Part shown: positions 2,988 to 46,173 of the stretch, one piece after another | How positions within the stretch are numbered: position 1 is the first letter of the stretch | Layout: each line of letters opens with the position of its first letter | NCBI RefSeq assembly: GCF_018476525.1 | Contig: NZ_JAHCST010000008.1 | Coordinates: 62,001 to 126,000 of the forward strand | Source: Acrocarpospora catenulata | Lineage (GTDB): Bacteria; Actinomycetota; Actinomycetes; Streptosporangiales; Streptosporangiaceae | DNA: 64,000 nt | Reading direction: 5' to 3' | Translations under genes and position numbers: made by a program | The notes under the pieces: generated by a model | What the model was told of the DNA's origin: nothing | The model's database searches: none | Seen by the model: only the letters and a program-made list of their open reading frames with translations

Positions 2988-4550
2988 CTATGCCCAGGGC
3001 TGGGATACGACCCAGCTCACGTCGTCGGCCCAGGAGGTTGCGCTGTCGAAGGTGTTCGAGCCGCCGTTGCCGGCGATGTAGACGGTGTTGTTGTAGTGGC
3101 GGAGGAATCGGGTCGGGAAGTTGTAGGAGGCGAACGAGGCGCCCTGGCCGTTGAGTCCGGTCTGTGGGCAGAACGTCGCGTCGGAGGCGAAGAGCGCGGT
3201 GCCGTCGTTCGCCTGGCGGTACAACTGGTAGTTGCGGTGCCGCAGGAAGCTGTTGGGGTAGTTCCTCGATTCGAACGACACGCATGAGCTGCCGGCCAGA
3301 CCGCTGCGGACGATCCAGGTGGCGTCGTTCTTGTCGAGGGACGAGCTGGACGAGGTGATCACCGACGTGATCGCGTTGTCGTTCTGGTGCCGGATGTAGC
3401 GGGTGTTGCAGCAGGACGTCGTCGCGCGCAGCGAGATCGACGAGTCGGGGGTCAGGGTGCCGTTCGCGCCCCCGGCCGGCGTCGCGTAGCCGGCGGCGAC
3501 GATGTTGGCCTGGACCGCGTTCTCGGTGGCGTCCGACGGATAACCGGAGGTCATCACGCCTTCGTAGAAGGTGCCGGTGCCGCTGATGCTGTTGTCGCCG
3601 CCGATACCGAGGATGATGGCGCCTTCCTTCTTCATCGGGTTGTAGCCTGCGACGTTCGGGCGTACCCCGTTGTAGAAGGTGGACAGGCTGCCAGACTGGG
3701 CGTTGCCGCCGCGGATGGCCCAGTGGTTCGGCTCGCCCTTGACGATGGCGGTCAGGAACCGGTGGTTCACGGTCGGGTCGTTGGCGTTGTACCTCTGGTT
3801 CACCCCGGAGAACAGGCCGTTTTCGAGATCGGCCATGATCCAGGGGCCGTTGCCGGCGCCGTAGCCCCAGATCGTGTTGTTCCCGAAGTAGATGGCCTCC
3901 ATGGTGCCGTTGCCGTTGTCGCGGCTGTTGGTCTCGGCGTTGCCGTAGTCGAAGCAGCAGCCGTTGTTGTAGTGGGTGCCGTTGAAGATGGCGTACATGC
4001 CCTCCGGCTGGTCCGCCTTCGCGACGCCGTTGGTGGCGTTGTTGCGGTACCCGGTGCCGGGGGCCACGTAGACCCCGTACGCCTTCTGGCCGCCGATCCT
4101 GACCGGTGCCGCGGTCGCGATCGCGAGGTTGTCGTATCCGCCCGCGGCCGGGCCGGAGAACCCGCCGGGGGGTGCCTGGGTGAGGCGGTTGTTCCGGCCG
4201 GACTGGTCGTAAATGATGGTGATGAGGCAGGTTGTGCCGGCGCAGAACGAATCCTGGGTGGCGGCGTTGGCGACTCCGCCCGCGCTCAGGACGCCGATGT
4301 CCCTGGTGGTGTTGTCCGAGGAGCGGCGTACCTGGTAGAGGGCGCCGTTGTAGGCGGCGTACAGGGCGCGGGTCGTGCTGTGCGCCGCCACGCACGGCGT
4401 GCCGCCTGAGGCGTAGATGTCACACGGCTGTGACGTCGCGGCCTGTGATGGCGTGGAGATGCCGGACAACAGACCGGCGGCGAGTGCGATGGCCGCACCC
4501 GCGGACAGCAGCGCCTTTTTGGGGTGCCGGAATCTGGACCTTAAAGTCAT
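2988..4550 (-). CDS. secreted alpha-L-arabinofuranosidase, GH54 + CBM42
   Basis: A 520-aa secreted enzyme that releases arabinofuranose side chains from arabinan and arabinoxylan. The ATG at 4550 has AGAGG upstream and opens a signal peptide ending near SQA|ATSQPC (about residue 38). Residues about 40-365 match the AbfB/GH54 catalytic fold, with CDIYASGGTPC, IIYDQSGRNN and the vicinal CC (198-199). E243 in ADLENG and D319 in GGDN are 76 residues apart, as are the nucleophile and acid of the characterised fungal enzyme (E221/D297). The C-terminal 150 residues are a CBM42 arabinose-binding beta-trefoil with repeated IRHQN, LRHRN and LRHYN motifs. A LacI-type operator and a promoter lie upstream. 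Confidence 0.93.
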   Translation of the reverse strand: MTLRSRFRHPKKALLSAGAAIALAAGLLSGISTPSQAATSQPCDIYASGGTPCVAAHSTTRALYAAYNGALYQVRRSSDNTTRDIGVLSAGGVANAATQDSFCAGTTCLITIIYDQSGRNNRLTQAPPGGFSGPAAGGYDNLAIATAAPVRIGGQKAYGVYVAPGTGYRNNATNGVAKADQPEGMYAIFNGTHYNNGCCFDYGNAETNSRDNGNGTMEAIYFGNNTIWGYGAGNGPWIMADLENGLFSGVNQRYNANDPTVNHRFLTAIVKGEPNHWAIRGGNAQSGSLSTFYNGVRPNVAGYNPMKKEGAIILGIGGDNSISGTGTFYEGVMTSGYPSDATENAVQANIVAAGYATPAGGANGTLTPDSSISLRATTSCCNTRYIRHQNDNAITSVITSSSSSLDKNDATWIVRSGLAGSSCVSFESRNYPNSFLRHRNYQLYRQANDGTALFASDATFCPQTGLNGQGASFASYNFPTRFLRHYNNTVYIAGNGGSNTFDSATSWADDVSWVVSQPWA

Positions 4551-33769: not shown

Positions 33770-35587
33770 CTAACCGCCGTTCCCCCGGGTGAGCTGGAAG
33801 TCGGCCGCCTGGCGGGTGAACAGGCGGGCGTACTCGCCGTCGAGGGCCATCAGCTGGTCGTGGGTGCCCTCTTCGGCGATCCGGCCGTCGGTGAGGACGA
33901 CGATGTGGTCCGCGCCGCGCACGGTGTTGAGGCGGTGGGAGATGAGCAGACTGGTACGCCCGGACCGGTAGTCGCGGAGTCGCTGGTGGATGGCGTGTTC
34001 GGCGTCGGGGTCCAGGCCCGAGCTGGGCTCGTCGAGGATGAGCAGGTCGGCGGTGTCGGCGCGGAGGAGGGCGCGGGCGAGGGCGACGCGCTGCCACTGG
34101 CCACCCGACAGGAGCACGCCCTGGCCGGGGTCCTCGTCCGGGTTGGCGGCGAAGAACCGCGACAGGATGGTGTCGTAGCCGCGGGGCAGGCTCATGAGTT
34201 TGTCGTGGATGTCCGCCCTGCTGGCCGCCTCGTGGAGCCGTTCCGGCTGGTCGAGGGAGTCGACGGCGCCGACGGCGATGTTCTCGGCGGCGGTGAGGTC
34301 GTAGGCCATGTAGTCCTGGAACACGGCTCCGATCCGGCGGCGCAGGCCGGCGATCCGCAGGTCGCGCAGGTCCGTGCCGTCCCATTGGACGCTGCCGCGC
34401 TCGGGGTCGTACAGGCGGCACAGCAGCTTGACGATGGTGCTCTTGCCCGCGCCGTTCAGGCCGACCAGGGCCACACTTCGCCCGTACGGGATGGTCAGGT
34501 TCACGCCCCGGAGCACGTAGGGGTGGTCGGCGTCGTACCGGAACCACAGGTCGCGGAGTTCGATGCCGCGCCGCAGCGGGGGCACGTCGCCGCCGGTGGC
34601 GGGTTCCGGCAGGTCGGGTCCGGCGGTCACGACGTGGGCGTAGTGGCCGGCCAGGACGAGTGCCTCGGTCAGATGGGCCAGCTGGACCACCATGCCGGAG
34701 AGGGCGGACTGGGTGCCCGCCACGGCGGCGGTGAGGACGGCCAGGTCGCCGATGCCGGCCTTGCCCGCCGCTATCCAGGAGACCAGCACGATCAGCGCGG
34801 CGCCCGCGATGATCGTGCTGAGAGCGGTCAGCGCTCCGTTGTAGCGGATGGCGGTCAGGTCCACCCGGCGTTCGGCCCGCTGCTGGGCGGCCAACTCGCC
34901 CAGCATGCGCCGGCGCAGGAAGTCGCCGATGCCGAACAGCCGGATCTCCTTGGCGGCCTGATGGTCGAGCATCAGCGTCTGGTAGAACATCCGGCGGCGT
35001 TCCGCGGGGGCCACCTCCCAGTTCAGGAGGGCGCGGTGGCGGCTGAGCCGGAGCTGGATGATCAGTTCGGGTACGGTGGCCGCGGCCACGACGGCGGCCA
35101 GCAGCGGGCTCAGCGTGGCGAGCGCGCCGAGCAGCCCGGTGATGGTGACACCGCTGCGGATCACGCCCAGCCCTGACTCGGTGATGAGCTGCGGGGCGGT
35201 CTGGGCGGACTGCTGGGCCATCTGGAGCCGGTCGTGGAACCGCGGGTTCTCCAGCCTGGTCAGCCCCTGCATGCGGCAGACGGCGGTGAACAGTTCGTCG
35301 CTGGTGTGCCAGACGATGCGGCGGTGCTGCTCCCGCTGGACGTACCCGGACAGGTGGGGCAGCAGCGCGGTCAGCGCTCCGAGTACGGCCATCGCGGCGG
35401 CCAGCGGGGTCGTCGAGGGGCCCACTCCGGCGGTCAGGCGATCGATCAGCAGTTTGGTCAGCCACGTGATCGCGACGGGGGAGGCGCCGGTCAGGACCGC
35501 CATGGCGAGCTGGGACAGGGCGAGTACGGGTCCGGCGCGCCAGACGAGCGCCAAGGTGAGCCGCAGCGGCCCGAGTCGTGACCTCAC
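33770..35587 (-). CDS. ABC exporter of six-Cys peptide cassette 2
   Basis: A 605-aa half-transporter: membrane domain (helices around residues 15-300), ATPase with Walker A GLNGAGKST, signature LSGGQ, Walker B LLILDEPSSGLD and H-loop ISHRLN. No C39 peptidase. It starts with GTG at 35587, four bases after the thioredoxin-like stop. It is paralogous to the cassette-1 exporter at 8514: both have AKEIRLFGIG/AKEVRLFGIG, VFQD-MAYD and an acidic insertion before LSGGQWQRVALARA. Likely exports the 69-aa six-cysteine peptide. Confidence 0.87.
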   Translation of the reverse strand: MRSRLGPLRLTLALVWRAGPVLALSQLAMAVLTGASPVAITWLTKLLIDRLTAGVGPSTTPLAAAMAVLGALTALLPHLSGYVQREQHRRIVWHTSDELFTAVCRMQGLTRLENPRFHDRLQMAQQSAQTAPQLITESGLGVIRSGVTITGLLGALATLSPLLAAVVAAATVPELIIQLRLSRHRALLNWEVAPAERRRMFYQTLMLDHQAAKEIRLFGIGDFLRRRMLGELAAQQRAERRVDLTAIRYNGALTALSTIIAGAALIVLVSWIAAGKAGIGDLAVLTAAVAGTQSALSGMVVQLAHLTEALVLAGHYAHVVTAGPDLPEPATGGDVPPLRRGIELRDLWFRYDADHPYVLRGVNLTIPYGRSVALVGLNGAGKSTIVKLLCRLYDPERGSVQWDGTDLRDLRIAGLRRRIGAVFQDYMAYDLTAAENIAVGAVDSLDQPERLHEAASRADIHDKLMSLPRGYDTILSRFFAANPDEDPGQGVLLSGGQWQRVALARALLRADTADLLILDEPSSGLDPDAEHAIHQRLRDYRSGRTSLLISHRLNTVRGADHIVVLTDGRIAEEGTHDQLMALDGEYARLFTRQAADFQLTRGNGG

Positions 35588-35591
35588 CCTG

Positions 35592-36131
35592 TCAGGTCCG
35601 GGACGGTACGGGCAGCCGCTCCAGCTTCAGGCTGCTGGCGGCGATGGTGGCGTCGGGGCCGACCAGGAAGAACGACGGGAAGGCCGTGACCGCGAACGCG
35701 TCCACCACCGCGCCACCCTCGCCCTCGACGACCACGCTCACGTCGTCCGTCAGCGCGGCGAGCAGGTTCGCGGGCTTCTCCTGGCCCTCCACCACCACCG
35801 CCAGCACCCGTACGCCGTCGGCCGCGGCCTCGCGGGCGGTGGCGGCGAAGGCGGGCGCCTTCGGCAGGCAGTGCCGGCAGTCGGTGCTGAAGAACCCGAC
35901 GAGGGTACGCTCGCCCGCGAAGTCGTCCGTGGTGACCTTGGTGTCCGTGGCGGTGAGCGCGGAGAAGGCCGGGATCTCGGCGCCCACGTCGAGGCCGGGG
36001 CTGACGGGAAGTCCCCCGGCGGGGGAGTCCTTGGTGATCTTTCGGAGTTTCCTGATGACCGCGCCGGTCAGGAGCAGGTTCACCAGCACGAGGCCGCCGA
36101 GCAGGATGACGGCGGCGACCAGGACGGCCAT
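35592..36131 (-). CDS. TlpA-like thioredoxin protein, cassette 2
   Basis: A 179-aa membrane-anchored thioredoxin-fold protein. One N-terminal helix (AAVILLGGLVLVNLLLTGAV) is followed by a redoxin domain whose active site is CRHC in FFSTDCRHCLPKAPAF. The cis-proline loop is VTAFPSFFLVG. The CRHC pair, different from CAPC of the cassette-1 paralogue, suggests a different redox potential. It lies between the six-Cys peptide gene and the ABC gene. Confidence 0.85.
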   Translation of the reverse strand: MAVLVAAVILLGGLVLVNLLLTGAVIRKLRKITKDSPAGGLPVSPGLDVGAEIPAFSALTATDTKVTTDDFAGERTLVGFFSTDCRHCLPKAPAFAATAREAAADGVRVLAVVVEGQEKPANLLAALTDDVSVVVEGEGGAVVDAFAVTAFPSFFLVGPDATIAASSLKLERLPVPSRT

Positions 36132-36267: not shown

Positions 36268-36477
36268 TCAGCAGTAGCCGATGTTCTGCCAGGGGCTGCT
36301 GCAGCTGGGACGGTGGTACTTGATGCAGAGAAAACCCGTCGGGTTGGGGTAGCACTCCCGGTACCGGGTGCAGCCACCCGTCACCCAGTACTCGAAACAG
36401 TTGTCGGCCTGCGCTTCGGCTCCGGGAAGGAGTCGTTCGAGCAGCCGGTCTCCCAGGCGGTTCAGCGTGCGGATCAT
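36268..36477 (-). CDS. six-cysteine secreted peptide precursor 2
   Basis: A 69-aa precursor; the ATG at 36477 has AAGGGAG. The leader MIRTLNRLGDRLLERLLPGA parallels precursor 1 at the same residues (RTL, R, D, LL, LP) and ends AQA|DNC, an AxA motif at residues 22-24, exactly as in precursor 1. The core has six cysteines at 27, 36, 42, 51, 59 and 69, contains ECYPNPTG (compare RCYPSGGG) and ends with Cys. Spacing differs from precursor 1, so the folds need not match. The thioredoxin-like and ABC genes follow on the same strand; an S26 peptidase is divergent. Confidence 0.85.
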   Translation of the reverse strand: MIRTLNRLGDRLLERLLPGAEAQADNCFEYWVTGGCTRYRECYPNPTGFLCIKYHRPSCSSPWQNIGYC

Positions 36478-36548
36478 GCGTGCTCCCTTCACTGATTCGG
36501 GCGGGGAGGCCGCCCGCCCTGTGAGGATGCTCGGCGCGGCCTTCGCCA

Positions 36549-36604
36549 CGGTTGCGGCCGATCCGGGTACGCCGCAACCGGACGCGCTACCACGGCGCAA
36601 CCGG
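36549..36604. promoter_or_regulatory. inverted and direct GCCGCAACCG repeats
   Basis: CGGTTGCGGC (36549-36558) and GCCGCAACCG (36571-36580) are perfect inverted copies; a third near-copy, GGCGCAACCGG, lies at 36594-36604. They sit between the divergent six-Cys peptide and S26 genes and are candidate operators for cassette 2. Confidence 0.5.
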
Positions 36605-36649: not shown

Positions 36650-37090
36650 ATGCAAGCGATTCTGTTGTCGTCGCTGGTCGTGGTCGCGGTGGCGATCGTG
36701 GCCCGGCGCCGCTTCGTCGTGGTACGGGTGGCGGGGACGAGCATGGTTCCGACGTACCAGCCGGGAGATCGGGTCCTGGTACGGCGCGGCGCGCAAGCGG
36801 CCCTGCGGCGCGGTCAGGTGGTGGTCTTCCGGCGGGTCGAGCCGGGCGGCGCGTCAAGACCTGCCCCCCGGCTGCGTGAGACGGAGTGGCTGATCAAGCG
36901 GATCGCCGCGATGCCGGGTGACCGGGTGCCCGACCAGGTCACGGCGGGTGTGCGTGCCGCGCCGGGAGATCTGGTCCCGGCCGGCCGGCTGGTGGTGCTC
37001 GGCGACGGCCCCACCAGCCGGGATTCGCGGGACTGGGGTTACCTGCCGGTGGAGGAGGTGCTGGGCGTCGTCATGCGCAGGCTGTCGTAG
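36650..37090 (+). CDS. S26 family signal peptidase, cassette 2
   Basis: A 146-aa single-pass peptidase: helix LLSSLVVVAVAIVA, catalytic box AGTSMVPTY, lysine box WLIKRIAAMPGD and final GD-PTSRDSRDWG box, so active-site Ser and Lys are present. ATG with AAAGG. It is divergent from the six-Cys peptide gene, 172 bases apart, and converges on the SARP gene. It is the counterpart of the S26 enzyme in cassette 1 and probably cuts after the AxA motif of peptide 2. Confidence 0.88.
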   Translation: MQAILLSSLVVVAVAIVARRRFVVVRVAGTSMVPTYQPGDRVLVRRGAQAALRRGQVVVFRRVEPGGASRPAPRLRETEWLIKRIAAMPGDRVPDQVTAGVRAAPGDLVPAGRLVVLGDGPTSRDSRDWGYLPVEEVLGVVMRRLS

Positions 37091-37096
37091 CCAGCG

Positions 37097-38983
37097 TTAG
37101 GAACACCGCGCGAGCAGCGCGCCCAGGACACGGGCGATCGCCTTGTCCCGGTCGTCGGGGGTTTCCTCCAGTTCGGCGCGTTCCCGTGCGTAGAGCCGCA
37201 CCAGATCATGGCAGCGGTAGCGGAACCGTCCGTCCCCGTCGCTGCCCTCGCAGGTCAGCAGCTGGGCGTCCACCAGCCGATCGGCGCAGGTCTCCGCCTC
37301 GGACACGGGGACGTCGAGGGCCGCCGCGAGCACCCAGGCGGCGAAGGCGGGGGCGTCGAGCAGGCCGAGCAGGCGCAGGGCCCGCCGGGAGGTCTCGTCG
37401 AGCATGCGGTAGTCGGCGGCCAGGCTCGCCCGTACCGACAGGTCGCCGATGGCGAGCTCCGCCAGGCGTTGCCGCTCGCCGCGCAGGCGGTCCGCCAGGT
37501 GTTCGAGGCGCCAGTGCTCGCGTAGCGCCAGTTTCGCCCCGGCGATCCTGATCGCCAGGGGAAGGTGGTCGCAGAGCCGCAGGATCTCGGCGGCGACCGC
37601 GGGCTGGGCAGCCACCCGGTCCGGCCCGGCGATGCGCGCGAGCAGCGCCGACGCGGATGCCGGGTCGAGCGTGCCGACGCGTGCGGACCGGGCGCTCAGT
37701 CCGGCCAGCCTGCGCCTGCTCGTCACCAGCACGGCGCAGCTCGGACTGCCCGGCAGGAGCGGCCTGACCTGCTCCTCGCTCGCGGCGTTGTCCAGCACCA
37801 CCAGCACGCGGCGCGGGGCCAGGAGGGCACGGAACAGTTTTCCGCGCTCCTCAAGCCCGTACGGCACCGCCCGCTCGTCCACGCCGAGGGCGATCAGAAA
37901 GTGCGCCAGCGTCTCGGCCGGGTCGCTCGGGCACGGGCAGGTTCCGTTCAGGTCGATGTAGAGCTGGCCGTCGGGGAACGTCTCCCGCAGGCGGTGGGCG
38001 ACGTGGACGGCGAGCGTCGTCTTGCCGGCGCCCGCCCTGCCGTACAGCGCGACGACCGGCATCGTGTGGCCCGCGCCGGTGAGCGACAGGCGCAGCGACG
38101 CGGCCATCTCGTGCCGGCCGGTGAAGTCCGCGATGTTCGGCGGCAGATGGCACGGCGCGACCGCCGTGGGCCCGATGCACGCCTCGTCTTCGGCAGGGAG
38201 ATGGGCCGCCCCGTCCAGCCCGAGGATCTCGTCGACGACCTCGGCCGGGTCGCCCCGCAGGATCGCCTCGTGCATCCGCTGCAGCATCCAGCCGGGCTCC
38301 ACGCCGAGTTCCTCGCCCAGCACGGTTCGCGTCCGCTGGTAGACCCGTAACGCCTCGGCCTGGCGCCCGGCGTGGCAGAGCGCCAGCATCAGACAGGCGT
38401 GCAGCCGTTCCCGGTACGGATGCAGCTCGGCCATCTCGGTCAGGCCGGTGACCAGCTCCGCGTGGCGGCCCAGGGCCAGGTTGACGGCGGCCAGTTCCTC
38501 GTGGGTGAGCAGCCGCTCCTCCTCGAGCCGCCGCGCCTCGTCCGCCACCAGCGCCGCGTCCCCGATGTCGGCGTACGCGGGCCCCCGCCACAGGTCCAGC
38601 GCACGCTGGAACAACGTCCCCGCCCTCGGCAGATCCGCCTTCCTCCTGGCGGCCCGCCCCGCCGCCGTGAGCTCGTGGAAGCGCAGCGCGTCCAGCTCCG
38701 GCGGCAGCACGGTGGCGGCGTAGCCACCGGTGCCGTGGACGATGCGGTCGTGCTCGCCCATCGCCTGCCTGAGCCGCAGCACGTACACCTGAAGGGTCTT
38801 GTGCGCGCTGCGCGGCGGATCGTTCCCCCACAGGGCCTCGATCAGCGTCGGCACCGCCACCGGCCGGCCCGGCGTGCACAGCAGGGTCGCCAGCAGGCGT
38901 CGCAGCATCGCCGCGCCCAGCGGGACGGGCACCCCGTCGCGGCTCGCCCGCAGCGGCCCGAGAACGTCGAACTCCAACAACAT
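37097..38983 (-). CDS. SARP/AfsR-family regulator
   Basis: About 628 aa. It has an OmpR-like DNA-binding domain (about 5-90; ALWGNDPPRSAHKTLQVYV), a BTAD helical domain (about 97-245; RFHELTAAGR...RLHACLMLALCHAGRQAEALRVY) and an NB-ARC-type NTPase with Walker A GRAGAGKTT and VLVVLDNA (Walker B). The C-terminal TPR domain of full AfsR is mostly missing. I start at the ATG 38983, which has GAGGGG, not at 39028. Such SARPs activate secondary-metabolite and peptide clusters by binding heptamer repeats. A promoter with these repeats lies upstream, and an identical block precedes cassette 1. A CebR-like operator sits between. Confidence 0.9.
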   Translation of the reverse strand: MLLEFDVLGPLRASRDGVPVPLGAAMLRRLLATLLCTPGRPVAVPTLIEALWGNDPPRSAHKTLQVYVLRLRQAMGEHDRIVHGTGGYAATVLPPELDALRFHELTAAGRAARRKADLPRAGTLFQRALDLWRGPAYADIGDAALVADEARRLEEERLLTHEELAAVNLALGRHAELVTGLTEMAELHPYRERLHACLMLALCHAGRQAEALRVYQRTRTVLGEELGVEPGWMLQRMHEAILRGDPAEVVDEILGLDGAAHLPAEDEACIGPTAVAPCHLPPNIADFTGRHEMAASLRLSLTGAGHTMPVVALYGRAGAGKTTLAVHVAHRLRETFPDGQLYIDLNGTCPCPSDPAETLAHFLIALGVDERAVPYGLEERGKLFRALLAPRRVLVVLDNAASEEQVRPLLPGSPSCAVLVTSRRRLAGLSARSARVGTLDPASASALLARIAGPDRVAAQPAVAAEILRLCDHLPLAIRIAGAKLALREHWRLEHLADRLRGERQRLAELAIGDLSVRASLAADYRMLDETSRRALRLLGLLDAPAFAAWVLAAALDVPVSEAETCADRLVDAQLLTCEGSDGDGRFRYRCHDLVRLYARERAELEETPDDRDKAIARVLGALLARCS

Positions 38984-39007
38984 CACCCCTCGCGAGGCCC
39001 AGTCGTG

Positions 39008-39021
39008 TGGGAGCGCTCCCA
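39008..39021. promoter_or_regulatory. CebR-type operator TGGGAGCGCTCCCA
   Basis: A perfect copy of the 14-bp palindrome recognised by the cello-oligosaccharide repressor CebR of streptomycetes. It lies 25 bases upstream of the SARP ATG and downstream of the SARP promoter block, so a repressor here would block transcription. Confidence 0.85.
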
Positions 39022-39053
39022 TCTTCATGAAGCCCGCTTCTCTTCGCGTGCTT

Positions 39054-39104
39054 GGCCGAGCATCGAAGACGCCGGTATAGGTCCGGTATAGGTCCTGGTA
39101 GAAC
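39054..39104 (-). promoter_or_regulatory. SARP-type promoter block of the SARP gene
   Basis: GGTATAG at 39074-39080 and 39085-39091, spacing 11 bp, in a 51-bp block that matches 12429-12479 at 43 positions. Read towards the SARP gene, the repeats precede CGATGCTC at the same distance as in cassette 1. Suggests autoregulation by the SARP. Confidence 0.7.
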
Positions 39105-39113
39105 GCGTTCCGG

Positions 39114-39770
39114 TCAGCCTCCCGGGCTGGTCAGGCCGGACTGGTAGGCGAAGACGACGAGTTGGGCGCGGTCGCGGGCGTGGACTTTCATCATGGCGCG
39201 GCTGACATGGGTCTTCACGGTGGCGGGGCTGATCACCAGGTGGGCGGCGATCTCGTCGTTGGACAACCCCTGGGCGGCCAGCGCGGTCACCTCGCGTTCG
39301 CGGTCGGTCAGGTGAGGCAGCCCCGCCGGAACCGGGTGCGGGCGGCGGGCGACGAACTCGCCGATGAGGCGGCGGGTGATGGCCGGTGACAGCAGGGCGT
39401 CCCCGCGGGCGGCCACCTGGATCCCGTGCAGCAGGTCGGCCGGGTCGGTGTCCTTCACCAGGAATCCGGTGGCGCCCGCGCGCAGCGCCTCGTAGACGTA
39501 CTCGTCCAGCCCGTAGTTGGTCAGGATGATCACATGGACGCCGGACAGGTCCGGGTCGCCGGCGATCCGCCTGGTCGTCTCGATGCCGTCCATCCCGGGC
39601 ATCTGCACGTCGACCAGCGCGACGTCGGGCAGGTGCCGCCGGGCCAGAGCCAGGCCCTGGGCGCCCTCGGACGCCTCGCCGACGACCTCGATGTCGTCCT
39701 CGGCCTCCAGCAGGGCGCGGAATCCGGCGCGGATCAGGGGCTGGTCGTCGACGAGGAGGACGCGGATCAC
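39114..39770 (-). CDS. NarL/LuxR-family response regulator
   Basis: A 218-aa regulator: receiver with DDQ acidic pair, phospho-acceptor Asp in ALVDVQMPGMDG, and T-A/K in the usual places (LVKDTD). The C-terminal LuxR HTH is LTDREREVTALAAQGLSNDEIA. It overlaps the cognate histidine kinase gene by 4 bases. The block at 39054-39104 lies just downstream of its stop. Confidence 0.93.
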   Translation of the reverse strand: MIRVLLVDDQPLIRAGFRALLEAEDDIEVVGEASEGAQGLALARRHLPDVALVDVQMPGMDGIETTRRIAGDPDLSGVHVIILTNYGLDEYVYEALRAGATGFLVKDTDPADLLHGIQVAARGDALLSPAITRRLIGEFVARRPHPVPAGLPHLTDREREVTALAAQGLSNDEIAAHLVISPATVKTHVSRAMMKVHARDRAQLVVFAYQSGLTSPGG

Positions 39771-40903
39771 GGCAGGTCCTTGATGGGAAGCTGGGCGTGG
39801 ACGGAGAAGCCGCCCTGCGGGCGAGGATGGGCCTGCAGGCGACCGCCGAGCGCGGTGACGCGTTCGCGCATGCCGATCAGGCCGTTGCCGGGGGTGGGCG
39901 ACAGGAGGGGTGAGCCCAGCCCGTCGTCCTCGACGCGCACCGCGAGCTCCTGCGGCTCGTAGCTGATGGTCACCGCGGCGGTGGCGGGGCCGGCGTGCCG
40001 GGAGACGTTCGTCAGGGCCTCCTGGACGATGCGGTAGGCGGCCCGGTTCACGGCCGCGGGCAGCCTGCGGGTCTCGCCGCTGATCGTCACGGTGGTGGGC
40101 AGGCCCGCCGAACGCACCCGATCGACCAGGCTGTCCAGCTGGTCCAGGCCGCTGCCCGGCGGCTCGCCGGTGGCGTCGCGCAGGGCCTCCAGGGTGGCGC
40201 GCAGCTCACGCATGGCGTCGGCGCCGGCCTCCCGGATGGCCAGCAGCGCCTCGGGCACCTCCTCGCCGTGTTTGCGGGCCAGGTGAATGGCCACCCCGGC
40301 CTGCACCTTGATGACCGAGATGCTGTGGGTGAGCGAGTCGTGCAGCTCGCGGGCGATCCGCAGCCGTTCCTCACCGGCTCTGCGCCTGGCCGCCTCCTCG
40401 CGGGTGCGCTCGGCCTCGGCGGCCCGCTGTTCGGCCTGCTCAAGGTAGGCCGCCCGGTGGCGGCTCACCGTGCCGCCGATCACGGCGGCCAGGAACCAGC
40501 CCAGCAGGAGGACCGTCTGCTCCACGATCGCCCGGGTGGGCTGGGCCGCGCCGGCCAGGCTCGCCGCCAGCGAGCCGGACAGGAACACGGCGCCCGCGGC
40601 CGCCGCGAGCAGCCGCCGGTCGTGCCTCGCCGCGGTGTAGACGGCGATCAGGACGGGGAAGGCCGCCTGCTGGGCGGGGGCGGCGGCCACGGCGTAGGCG
40701 AGCATGCACGCGGTGGTGACCAGCAGGACCGGGACCGGGGCACGGCCGCGTACGGCCAGAGCGAGGCAACCGGCCGCGATCGCCGCATAGCTCAGCGGGC
40801 CGGTGCCGGGCACCGAGGCGGCACTGGCGATCTGCACGGCGGTGAGAGCCACCGCGAGGGCGACATCGGGCACCGTCTTATGCCGCCTCAGCTCGAACAG
40901 CAT
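39767..40903 (-). CDS. NarL-type sensor histidine kinase
   Basis: A 378-aa kinase with about five membrane helices and no large outer domain, then a coiled coil (AEQRAAEAERTREEAARRR). The HisKA_3 dimerisation helix carries His in ELHDSLTHSISVIKVQ, and the ATPase has VEDDGLGSP and GNGLIGMRERV. It is the usual intramembrane-sensing kinase; the signal is unknown. Coupled with the regulator at 39114 and divergent from the membrane protein at 41100. Confidence 0.92.
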   Translation of the reverse strand: MLFELRRHKTVPDVALAVALTAVQIASAASVPGTGPLSYAAIAAGCLALAVRGRAPVPVLLVTTACMLAYAVAAAPAQQAAFPVLIAVYTAARHDRRLLAAAAGAVFLSGSLAASLAGAAQPTRAIVEQTVLLLGWFLAAVIGGTVSRHRAAYLEQAEQRAAEAERTREEAARRRAGEERLRIARELHDSLTHSISVIKVQAGVAIHLARKHGEEVPEALLAIREAGADAMRELRATLEALRDATGEPPGSGLDQLDSLVDRVRSAGLPTTVTISGETRRLPAAVNRAAYRIVQEALTNVSRHAGPATAAVTISYEPQELAVRVEDDGLGSPLLSPTPGNGLIGMRERVTALGGRLQAHPRPQGGFSVHAQLPIKDLP

Positions 40904-42992: not shown

Positions 42993-45086
42993 TCAGCTGG
43001 TGGTGCCGGTGACCGTGGAGCCCGACTTGGTGATGTAGTAGTTCACGGTCGTGCCGCTCCAGAAGTGGAAGGTGAGCGTCACCCGCTGGCCGTCGTTGAC
43101 CTCGCCGAAGAAGTCCGGCTTCAGGGTGATGGTGTTGGAGCTGTAGTTGGGTGCGAACGTGACGTCGAACTCCTTGAACGACGTCCAGTTCTGGGGGCCG
43201 GCGTTGGTGCCGTTGGCGTACTTGGCCTCCATCGTGGCGAGCTGGTCACCCCTGAACTGGGTGGGGATGGTGAAGTTGCCCGTCACGCCGGTCGAGTTCT
43301 GCAGGATCGGCGTGTCGTAGCTGAGGATGTCGATCCGCCACGGGACGCCCTGGGAGAACCTGGCCGACAGCGTCGCGTTCACGCCGTACGCGCGGGAGCC
43401 CGTCAGCCGGGTGAGCGCCGAGGCCGTGAGGGTGAGCTGGCTGCCCGAGACGGTGTAGTCGGTGCCGTTCACCAGATCGGTGCTGCCCTGCCTGAGGCCC
43501 TGGAACGTGGTGCCGTTCAGGTTCAGCGTGAGCGTCTTGCTGCTGATGGCGGACGACCTCGCGTTGTACACCTGGTCCGAGGAGGCCGTGCCCGAGCGGG
43601 TCGTCCAGCTGGACTTGATCTGCCCGAACAGTTCGGGGTCGGACCACTGGAACGAGGTGCGGCCGAAGTGCTGGCCGTTGTCCCACAGCATGGTGGTGAG
43701 CTGCCGGAACCTGGCGTAGTAGCCGAGGTACTCGAAGAACTTCAGTTTCTCGCCCTGCTCGATCGTGCCGGTGTGGCGGTCGAAGCCCAGCAGGCCGTAC
43801 TCACCGATGATCACGGGGATGCCGCGGGCCACGAAGGCGTTGTACGCCCGGTCGAACTGGTCGATCAGGTCCTGCTGCACGGTGGCGTCGAAGCGGGTGC
43901 CGCCGGCGATGTTCACGCTGAACGGCCAGTATCCGTAGAAGTGCACGGTCGCGACGAGGTTGGGGTCGTTCATCGCGTTGAACGTGGTGACCAGCTCGTT
44001 GAGCCTGGCCTGGTCGGCCGAGGTGTGCAGGGTCGGCAGGACCAGGAGCCGGGTCGCGTTGTTGCCGCCCGACTGGCGGACGATGTTCCGGAAGGACGTG
44101 TTGAGCTCGTTCAGCAGCGTCGCGTTCTGGGCGTCGCCGGAGCTGCCGGTGAACTGCGGCTCGTTGACGCTCTCGAAGAGCAGCTTGGCGGAGGAGTTCC
44201 GGAACGTGGTGGCGATCTGGGTCCAGGTCGCGTTGTAACGGGCGAGGACGTTCGTCCGGTCGCCCGGCATGTTGTTGATCCACTGCCAGGAGTCGTGGTG
44301 GATGTTGATCATTACGTAGAAGCCCTCGGCGAGGGCCCAGTCCACGACCTCTTTCACCCGGTTCATGTGCGTCGCGTTGATGGTGTAGCTGGGCGCGCCA
44401 CCCTGGTACTGGCCCCAGGTCACCGGGATCCGGATGCTGTTGAAGCCCTGCGCCTTGATGTTGCGGAGCAGCGCCTGCGTGATCTGCGGGTTGCCCCATG
44501 AGGTTTCGCCGCTACCGGTGGCGTCGAGGGAGTTGCCCAGGTTCCAGCCGGGCTGCATCGCGGCCACGATGGCGCGCGCGTTGCCGGGCGGCGGGGTCGG
44601 CGTGGGCGTCGGGGTCGGTGTCGGGCTGGGCGTCGGGGTTGGGGTCGGGGTGGGTGTCGGGGATGGCGTGGGGGTGGGGCTCGGCGAGCCGCCGCAGGTC
44701 ACGCCGTTGAGGGTGAAAGTGGTCGGGTTGGTGTTGGTGCCGGTGTAGCTGCCGTTGAAGCCGACGGTGATGCCGGCTCCCGATCCCAGGCCAGGGGCCC
44801 ATCCCGGGGCGGTCACCGTCACGTTCGCGCCCGACTGGGTCCAGGTTCCGCTCCAGCCGTCGGTGACCCGCTGGTTACCGGGCCAGGTATAGCGCAGCGT
44901 CCACGGGCTGACCGCGTCGCCGAGGTTGTTGATCGTGATGTTGGCGCCGAATCCGCTGCCGTTGTCCCAGGCCTTGGTGTAGGTCACGGAACAGGCGACC
45001 GCCGCTTGGGCCGGGGCGACGGTCACCCCGATCGCGGCCAGCAGCGCCGCCGCTGTGGACAGAGTCCATAAACGCAGTCTCTTCAC
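42993..45086 (-). CDS. secreted cellulase, CBM2 + GH5 + C-terminal Ig-like/CBM46 domains
   Basis: 697 aa from a GTG at 45086 with GGAGG upstream. A signal peptide ends near AQAA|VACSV. The CBM2 (about 30-135; TWPGNQRVTDGWSGTW carries the binding tryptophans) binds crystalline cellulose. A Pro-Thr-Ser repeat linker of about 30 residues follows. The GH5 domain (about 190-480) has acid Glu in FESVNEPQF and nucleophile Glu in IIGEYGLLG. The last 200 residues form an X2-like Ig domain and a CBM46-like beta-domain (WTSFKEFDV). An endoglucanase of beta-1,4-glucans. A CebR-type box lies 36 bases upstream. Confidence 0.93.
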   Translation of the reverse strand: MKRLRLWTLSTAAALLAAIGVTVAPAQAAVACSVTYTKAWDNGSGFGANITINNLGDAVSPWTLRYTWPGNQRVTDGWSGTWTQSGANVTVTAPGWAPGLGSGAGITVGFNGSYTGTNTNPTTFTLNGVTCGGSPSPTPTPSPTPTPTPTPTPSPTPTPTPTPTPPPGNARAIVAAMQPGWNLGNSLDATGSGETSWGNPQITQALLRNIKAQGFNSIRIPVTWGQYQGGAPSYTINATHMNRVKEVVDWALAEGFYVMINIHHDSWQWINNMPGDRTNVLARYNATWTQIATTFRNSSAKLLFESVNEPQFTGSSGDAQNATLLNELNTSFRNIVRQSGGNNATRLLVLPTLHTSADQARLNELVTTFNAMNDPNLVATVHFYGYWPFSVNIAGGTRFDATVQQDLIDQFDRAYNAFVARGIPVIIGEYGLLGFDRHTGTIEQGEKLKFFEYLGYYARFRQLTTMLWDNGQHFGRTSFQWSDPELFGQIKSSWTTRSGTASSDQVYNARSSAISSKTLTLNLNGTTFQGLRQGSTDLVNGTDYTVSGSQLTLTASALTRLTGSRAYGVNATLSARFSQGVPWRIDILSYDTPILQNSTGVTGNFTIPTQFRGDQLATMEAKYANGTNAGPQNWTSFKEFDVTFAPNYSSNTITLKPDFFGEVNDGQRVTLTFHFWSGTTVNYYITKSGSTVTGTTS

Positions 45087-45121
45087 TTCAAGCCTCCATG
45101 GAAGGAGCTCCCGGGTCAGGT

Positions 45122-45135
45122 CGGGAGCGCTCCCA
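45122..45135. promoter_or_regulatory. CebR-type operator of the GH5 gene
   Basis: CGGGAGCGCTCCCA, one base off the CebR consensus palindrome (first T is C); the central 12 bp are a perfect palindrome. It lies 36 bases upstream of the GH5 GTG. Confidence 0.8.
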
Positions 45136-45408
45136 TGTTTGGCGTGATCACCCGTAGGTGTACAGGACGTTTCCCCAGGCTGCTCCGCTGACCTGCTCCT
45201 GCGCATGAAGCGTTCATCGGAGGTAAGAAAGTTTCAGCTGCGGGTGATGGCGTGGCCGCCGGTGAAACATTCACCGGGAGCGTGCTGCCCGCCGTGGCTT
45301 GACCTGCGCCGGTGAAGATTTCTATCTGCAGGTGTTTCCTGTGAAGAGACGCAGATTTACGGTAACTCCGTTTCCATTCGGAAAACGGTCGATCGCATCG
45401 AAATTTCG

Positions 45409-45480: not shown

Positions 45481-46173
45481 ATGCTCAGAACGCTGCGTCT
45501 CTTCGTCCCGGTATCCATTCTCGTCGCGCTGGTCGGGGTGCTCGCCCAGCCCGCCCAGGCCGCCGTCTGGTCCTCCACGGCCCAGTGGGCCACCTGGACC
45601 AACGGCGGCTACACCCTTTACAACAACATCTGGGGCAGCGGCGCCGGCCCACAAACGATCTGGGCGAATTCGTACAGCAACTGGGGTGTCTGGGCGAACC
45701 ACCCCAACACCGGTGGCGTCAAGTCCTACCCCAACGCCACCCGGAACGTGAACCGGCGGATCAGCACCCTCGGCAGCGCGACCAGCAGCTTCAACGTCAC
45801 CGTGCCGAACGGCGGCGCGTACACCTCCGCGTACGACATCTGGTGCGACGGCAACACCTACGAGATCATGCTCTGGATGAACAAGTACGGCCCGGTGGGC
45901 CCGCTCGGCTCGCGGCAGACGAGCGCCTCGGTGGGCGGTCACACCTGGGACGTCTACCGCGGCTCCAACGGTGCCAACCAGGTGTTCTCCTTCGTACGCC
46001 AGGGCAACACCAACGCCGGGACCGTGGACATCAAGGCGATCCTGAACTGGATTCGGTCCAGGGGCTGGTTCGGTGACGTGACGCTCAGCTACGTGCAGTT
46101 CGGCTACGAGATCACCTCGTCCAGCGGCGGCATGGACTTCCGTACCAACAGCTTCTCGGTGTCGGCGACCTGA
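45481..46173 (+). CDS. secreted endoglucanase, GH12
   Basis: A 230-aa single-domain enzyme of full GH12 length. The signal peptide ends AQPAQAA|VWSS. Catalytic residues are E128 in TYEIMLWMN (nucleophile) and E210 in FGYEITSSSGG (acid/base). AYDIWCDG precedes the first. It has no carbohydrate-binding module, unlike the divergent GH5 cellulase, and would act on amorphous cellulose or xyloglucan. Controlled by the operator at 45409. Confidence 0.92.
   Translation: MLRTLRLFVPVSILVALVGVLAQPAQAAVWSSTAQWATWTNGGYTLYNNIWGSGAGPQTIWANSYSNWGVWANHPNTGGVKSYPNATRNVNRRISTLGSATSSFNVTVPNGGAYTSAYDIWCDGNTYEIMLWMNKYGPVGPLGSRQTSASVGGHTWDVYRGSNGANQVFSFVRQGNTNAGTVDIKAILNWIRSRGWFGDVTLSYVQFGYEITSSSGGMDFRTNSFSVSAT

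What the first reader, a model, noticed from the sequence alone, without database searches (positions are those of the whole stretch)
39008..39021. Perfect CebR-type box in front of the SARP gene
TGGGAGCGCTCCCA is the sequence of CebR operators, which sense cellobiose or cellotriose. It lies between the SARP promoter block and the SARP ATG. A near-identical box controls the GH5 cellulase 6 kb away. If functional, cellulose breakdown would release the SARP and thus the peptide cassette: an unusual coupling of plant-biomass sensing to peptide production.
Basis: partly seen in the sequence, partly recalled or inferred. Interest (0 to 1): 0.75.

Follow-up and report, generated by a model that had tools for sequence, protein, structure and literature searches.

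The report
Cellulose-sensor operator before antibiotic-type regulator gene
A perfect landing site for the bacterium's cellulose-sugar repressor lies just in front of the master switch of a small-peptide gene set, and the same kind of site lies before several other peptide-making genes in this bacterial family, so breaking down plant matter probably switches on these compounds.

Summary
The box is real. TGGGAGCGCTCCCA occurs once in the window, at 39008-39021, with 0.00 expected in shuffles. It is centred 31.5 nt upstream of the SARP ATG. The genome holds 19 exact copies, against 0 of the reversed control palindrome. They precede GH5/6/9/12/48 cellulases, the cebEFG-bgl-cebR operon and NRPS genes. 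The genome encodes a CebR/CelR next to cebEFG (413.8 bits to PDB 5YSZ).

The SARP cassette (SARP, S26 peptidase, Cys-rich 69-aa peptide, redoxin, ABC exporter) is syntenic in 9 Microbispora genomes. One of these 9 (G142) also has an exact box before its SARP; the other 8 do not. So the coupling is lineage-specific: ancestral and lost, or gained twice.

The larger finding is that CebR boxes precede secondary-metabolism genes across the family. One NRPS gene has an exact box upstream in 27 of 27 genomes of four genera.

Best reading: CebR represses the SARP, and cello-oligosaccharides release it. The principle is known for thaxtomin/TxtR in Streptomyces scabies. The SARP/peptide and conserved NRPS targets appear new. 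Binding, induction, and SARP control of the peptide genes are inferred, not shown.

The parts
39008..39021 (.). CebR/CelR operator TGGGAGCGCTCCCA (perfect 14-bp palindrome)
   Evidence: 19 exact copies genome-wide against 0 control; exact box at the orthologous position in G142
39074..39095 (.). 11-bp direct repeat GGTATAGGTCC x2, resembling a SARP-type binding site (spacing recalled from the SARP literature); about 52 nt upstream of the box
   Evidence: related repeat block present in several Microbispora orthologues
37097..38983 (-). SARP transcription activator (Trans_reg_C + BTAD + NB-ARC, 628 aa, one TTA codon at 212); in-frame alternative start 39028
   Evidence: Pfam; start and TTA; lacks the C-terminal part of its orthologues
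36650..37090 (+). S26 signal peptidase-like protease of the cassette
   Evidence: Pfam (longer ORF), NCBIfam TIGR02227; syntenic
36268..36477 (-). Cys-rich 69-aa peptide gene, putative product or precursor
   Evidence: no NCBIfam match; found in 9 of 9 Microbispora cassettes
35592..36131 (-). Redoxin/AhpC-TSA-type thiol oxidoreductase (weak MauD match)
   Evidence: Pfam, NCBIfam
33770..35587 (-). ABC exporter (membrane + ATPase)
   Evidence: Pfam; 84-88% identical in Microbispora
39114..39770 (-). LuxR-type response regulator immediately upstream of the SARP, same direction
   Evidence: Pfam
39767..40903 (-). Histidine kinase (HisKA_3), overlaps the response regulator gene
   Evidence: Pfam
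45122..45135 (.). Second CebR box CGGGAGCGCTCCCA (one mismatch)
42993..45206 (-). GH5 cellulase with CBM2, CBM_X2 and CBM46; the box overlaps the start of the called ORF (a shorter start downstream of the box is likely)
   Evidence: Pfam; GH5-CBM46 genes of the same domain make-up in G002 and G004 carry exact boxes
45481..46173 (+). GH12 cellulase, divergent from the GH5 gene and sharing its box region
   Evidence: Pfam

Best explanation
The box is a CebR (CelR) operator. CebR, encoded on contig C94 directly after cebEFG-bgl, sits on it between the promoter repeats and the start codon of the SARP gene, and blocks transcription when cello-oligosaccharides are absent. Cellobiose or cellotriose imported by CebEFG releases CebR, so the SARP is made together with the cellulases. 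The SARP then activates its own promoter through the 11-bp repeats and the divergent S26/peptide-redoxin-exporter genes next to it. Shown here: the box, its non-chance abundance, the CebR gene, the regulon, the recurrence before the orthologous SARP of one other genus, and cassette synteny. Inferred: binding, repression, induction, autoregulation, and SARP control of the peptide genes.
For: Exact box, 0.00 expected in the window. 19 exact copies in the own genome and 84 in five genomes of the genus, against 0 reversed-palindrome controls. Targets are GH5/6/9/12/48 cellulases, cebE and LacI genes. The LacI gene after cebEFG-bgl matches PDB 5YSZ over nearly its whole length with an identical AGVGRGTVSRVINGS recognition-helix region. 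The box centre is 31.5 nt upstream of the ATG, within the range seen at cellulase and LacI genes of this regulon (for example 28-46 nt). The SARP is the only called gene that starts beside the box. G142, a Microbispora genome, has an exact box before its 76%-identical SARP, after the same type of repeat block. The cassette is conserved in 9 of 9 Microbispora loci that have the SARP. The peptide, redoxin and exporter genes have no box of their own within 3 mismatches, so only the SARP can link them.
Against: 8 of 10 close orthologues (window plus 9 Microbispora) have no box at the SARP, although the three Microbispora genomes counted carry many boxes elsewhere. The more distant copies also lack it, including the own paralogue on C119 and those in G002, G017 and G316. 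No sigma-70-like promoter was found near the SARP start by a simple scan, so the distance from the transcription start is unknown. The HK-RR genes end about 130 nt upstream in the same direction, so SARP could also be read from them. Other LacI paralogues with boxes (L020, L029) might bind the same site.
Confidence: 0.72

Rival explanations
1. CebR binds the box, but the site has little effect on the peptide cassette. The SARP is driven mainly by HK-RR read-through or other signals, and the box is a recent, near-neutral gain.
For: The box is absent in 8 of 10 close orthologues. HK-RR lies directly upstream on the same strand.
Against: A roadblock in the leader would also stop read-through. An exact 14-mer at the same place in two genera is hard to keep without selection.
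Confidence: 0.17
2. The box is bound by another LacI-family regulator of the same regulon rather than by CebR.
For: Two further LacI genes have boxes upstream of themselves in 5 of 5 genomes of the genus.
Against: Only the ceb-operon LacI was compared with solved structures here; it keeps the recognition-helix region of 5YSZ. By eye, the other two differ in the corresponding positions.
Confidence: 0.07
3. The palindrome is a chance match or a coding/leader feature with no regulator.
For: An in-frame upstream ATG means the box could encode MGALP.
Against: 19 copies against 0 controls in this genome, 84 against 0 in the genus, 712 against 6 in 120 family genomes (my addition of the table), and recurrence in G142.
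Confidence: 0.02

Closest known systems
CebR control of txtR and thaxtomin genes in Streptomyces scabies (passages read in PMC4890002, PMC5332605, PMC12527672)
   Same: CebR operators of the same 14-bp palindrome govern a cluster-situated activator and biosynthetic genes; the activator gene has a TTA codon (TxtR in print; the SARP here).
   Different: TxtR is AraC/XylS-type and its sites are imperfect and lie at -786/-900 or inside txtB. Here the activator is a SARP, the site is perfect and about 31 nt before the start, the organism is not Streptomyces and has an apparent full cellulase regulon, and the neighbouring product is a ribosomal Cys-rich peptide.
CelR regulon of Thermobifida fusca and other actinobacteria (passages read in PMC3377646)
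   Same: Same type of palindrome, same operon layout of cellobiose transporter, beta-glucosidase and CelR, cellulase targets; close CelR homologues and sites were reported for Streptosporangium roseum.
   Different: The passages read list glycosyl hydrolases, transporters, regulators and signalling proteins, not NRPS or SARP cassettes; the supplementary site tables were not seen.
Cello-oligosaccharide-responsive clusters of S. scabiei (passages read in PMC8914351)
   Same: Cellulose breakdown products raise several secondary metabolites.
   Different: The passage on cryptic clusters that respond says none of their genes has a predicted CebR site upstream, so that response is thought indirect; here sites lie directly at NRPS and SARP genes.

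Membership tests
CebR/CelR operator | TGGGAGCGCTCCCA palindrome | tested here: met
   Exact; same consensus in PMC4890002 and PMC4898821 (passages)
CebR/CelR operator | Genome encodes a CelR-type LacI repressor in a cellobiose-transporter operon with its own boxes | tested here: met
   L018: two boxes, cebE-like SBP, two further ORFs read as permeases, GH1-like ORF, LacI; only the SBP and LacI were run against libraries
CebR/CelR operator | Bound by CebR and released by cellobiose or cellotriose | not testable with these tools
   Needs gel shift
SARP family activator | N-terminal winged helix plus BTAD | tested here: met
   PF00486 33.8 bits, PF03704 145.9 bits
AfsR equivalog (NF053617) | Score over the curated cut-off of 1430 bits; full-length C-terminal region | tested here: not met
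   526.2 bits; C-terminal region absent
CebR-gated cluster activator (thaxtomin type) | CebR site controls an activator that turns on a biosynthetic cluster | tested here: inconclusive
   Site and cassette synteny present; no expression evidence
RiPP/bacteriocin cassette | Match of the peptide to a curated precursor family | tested here: not met
   Peptide has no NCBIfam match; Pfam was not run on the peptide

The most novel reading that the evidence does not exclude
In this actinomycete family CebR is a master switch that ties cellulose breakdown directly to peptide secondary metabolism. Besides the SARP-peptide cassette it gates a set of NRPS genes, one with an invariant operator in four genera, others conserved through the genus, and a large regulator with a LuxR-type C terminus in Microbispora bryophytorum. 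Plant-polymer sensing and chemical defence or signalling would form one old regulon, not a pathogen's special invention.
Probability: 0.6. Interest if true: 0.78.

Novelty: new variant of a known kind. Interest (0 to 1): 0.6.

Why it matters
If true, cellobiose is a rational elicitor for silent peptide and NRPS clusters in Streptosporangiaceae-type actinomycetes, a natural-product source where elicitors are mostly guessed. It would move CebR control of secondary metabolism from one plant pathogen to a broad lineage, and it makes the question 'which signal turns on this cluster?' directly testable by growth on cellobiose and a cebR deletion.

Tried and rejected
Chance or coding origin of the box: rejected by controls. 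Box as a fixed feature of the cassette: rejected, 8 of 10 close orthologues lack it. Box unique to this genome, which I held after (0 of 25 loci at <=2 mismatches): rejected when G142 was found. Gain or loss history: the tree of SARP+redoxin+ABC does not resolve the base (8.9/31 and 73.2/48 support), so it stays open. A direct box at the peptide operon: none within 3 mismatches. A shared SARP-type repeat in the peptide/S26 intergenic region: not found; only a 10-mer GATGCTCGGC is shared. Family searches with n=400 scored only 3-4 candidates per genome, so 5 of 341 and 27 of 341 are lower bounds; the first missed known M. bryophytorum, M. catharanthi and M. amethystogenes orthologues, which one search recovered. 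Of the 30 sites at <=1 mismatch in the own genome, 29 were examined; C128:16003 was not fetched. No structure prediction was run. Literature: eight searches; none listed a CebR-controlled SARP, or CebR control of NRPS in this family, in the open-access library searched; on 5YSZ listed only ceramics papers among its first five, so its identity as T. fusca CelR is recalled.

Full report
OBSERVATION. The palindrome TGGGAGCGCTCCCA is at 39008-39021 as reported. It is the only exact copy in the window, with 0.00 expected in 100 dinucleotide shuffles. A one-mismatch copy at 45122-45135 lies at the start of the GH5 gene (two sites at <=1 mismatch against 0.03 expected). At <=3 mismatches the window has fewer hits than expected (4 against 7.42), so only the two strong sites matter.

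PLACE. The SARP gene runs from 38983 to 37097 on the minus strand (BTAD 145.9 bits, Trans_reg_C 33.8, NB-ARC 47.2). The box centre is 31.5 nt upstream of that ATG. Further upstream is an 11-bp direct repeat at 39074-39095, which resembles SARP binding sites (spacing recalled). A response regulator and histidine kinase lie upstream in the same direction. In-frame ATGs at 39028 and 39022 precede the box; start choice is unsettled.

GENOME-WIDE. The own genome (10.29 Mb, 181 contigs) has 19 exact and 11 one-mismatch sites; the reversed palindrome has 3 at <=1 mismatch and 0 exact. Composition models expect 0.05-0.14 exact copies. Five genomes of the genus have 19, 16, 17, 15 and 17 exact sites (84 in all) against 0 controls. 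In 120 family genomes, 87 have at least one; my addition of the table gives 712 against 6 controls.

REGULON. I examined 29 of the 30 own sites (C128:16003 was not fetched). Pfam-called genes at exact sites include GH5, GH6 (three), GH9, GH12 and GH48 enzymes with cellulose-binding domains, a cebE-like solute-binding protein (two boxes), a family-5 solute-binding protein/LacI pair and a second LacI gene. Three of the 29 sites had no called gene starting nearby. The ceb locus reads SBP, two ORFs taken as permeases, GH1-like ORF, LacI. That LacI protein's best solved relative is 5YSZ (413.8 bits, next best 156.3) with an identical recognition-helix region; 5YSZ being T. fusca CelR is recalled.

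SARP BOX IN RELATIVES. All nine carry the S26, peptide, redoxin and ABC genes beside it. One of the nine, G142, has an exact box before the SARP, again after the repeat block. The other eight have no site within 2 mismatches there, though the three Microbispora genomes counted have 18-21 sites at <=1 mismatch elsewhere. More distant copies (own C119, G002, G017, G316) lack it, as do the 25 loci. The tree leaves the base open: an old box with losses, or two gains, both fit.

NRPS. The boxes also precede NRPS genes. In the own genome, condensation domains (49 matches) form 14 groups by my grouping; four groups have boxes at gene starts, two with an exact site and two with one-mismatch sites only. 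The divergent condensation-domain/NRPS pair has an exact box in 5 of 5 genus genomes. The NRPS beside the ceb operon was found in 27 of 341 family genomes from four genera, and all 27 have an exact box 120-252 nt upstream; the box is the longest invariant block of that promoter alignment. In the fifth genus genome (G001) this NRPS was not found by the search, but an exact box lies between the same glycosyltransferase-like gene and a PP-binding ORF. Microbispora genomes show boxes at further NRPS genes (similar by BLAST to the genus NRPS), and M. bryophytorum has one 84 nt before a 958-aa protein with a LuxR-type C terminus.

MECHANISM. The simplest reading is repression of the SARP by CebR bound in the leader, lifted by cello-oligosaccharides, followed by SARP activation of the neighbouring peptide genes. 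The first step rests on operator identity, abundance, placement and recurrence in G142. The second rests on synteny only. The SARP gene has a TTA codon, as reported for TxtR (PMC4890002, passage), so a second developmental lock is possible.

KNOWN WORK. CebR control of txtR/txtA/txtB is published (passages in PMC4890002, PMC5332605, PMC12527672; the original mBio paper was not held). CelR sites across actinobacteria are published (PMC3377646, passages). In S. scabiei, responding cryptic clusters were reported without CebR sites upstream (PMC8914351, passage). Hence a new variant of a known kind.

Noticed in passing
L018:11319-11332 (G000 C94:49318) and L224-L253: An NRPS gene near the ceb operon has an exact CebR box upstream in 27 of 27 genomes (four genera) where the gene was found.
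   Followed up: yes
L024:2943-2956 and 3109-3122: Divergent stand-alone condensation-domain gene and NRPS share an exact CebR box, conserved in 5 of 5 genomes of the genus.
   Followed up: partly
L208:2953-2966 (M. bryophytorum genome G007): Exact CebR box 84 nt before a 958-aa protein with a LuxR-type C terminus, another large regulator possibly under cellobiose control.
   Followed up: partly
window 37097-38983: The window SARP (628 aa) lacks the C-terminal part present in orthologues (ORFs of 1052-1163 aa in G142, M. catharanthi, M. bryophytorum); a possible loss of a sensing domain.
   Followed up: partly
window 39020-39045: A GAGAAG-ATG element before the box is an in-frame alternative SARP start here; in M. 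catharanthi the matching ATG, read by eye, opens a short separate upstream ORF.
   Followed up: no
window 36478-36600: The peptide/S26 divergent promoter has a block (GCATCCTCACAG..GCGGGCGGCCT) strongly conserved with three Microbispora species, and shares the 10-mer GATGCTCGGC with the SARP promoter on the other strand.
   Followed up: partly
G000 C119 (L107, L202): A second, diverged copy of the SARP-peptide-redoxin-ABC cassette exists in the same genome, without a CebR box.
   Followed up: partly
window 38985-38998: Palindrome CCTCGCGAGG at the SARP ribosome-binding region, also seen in M. catharanthi and M. bryophytorum; scored as terminator-like by a simple scan.
   Followed up: no
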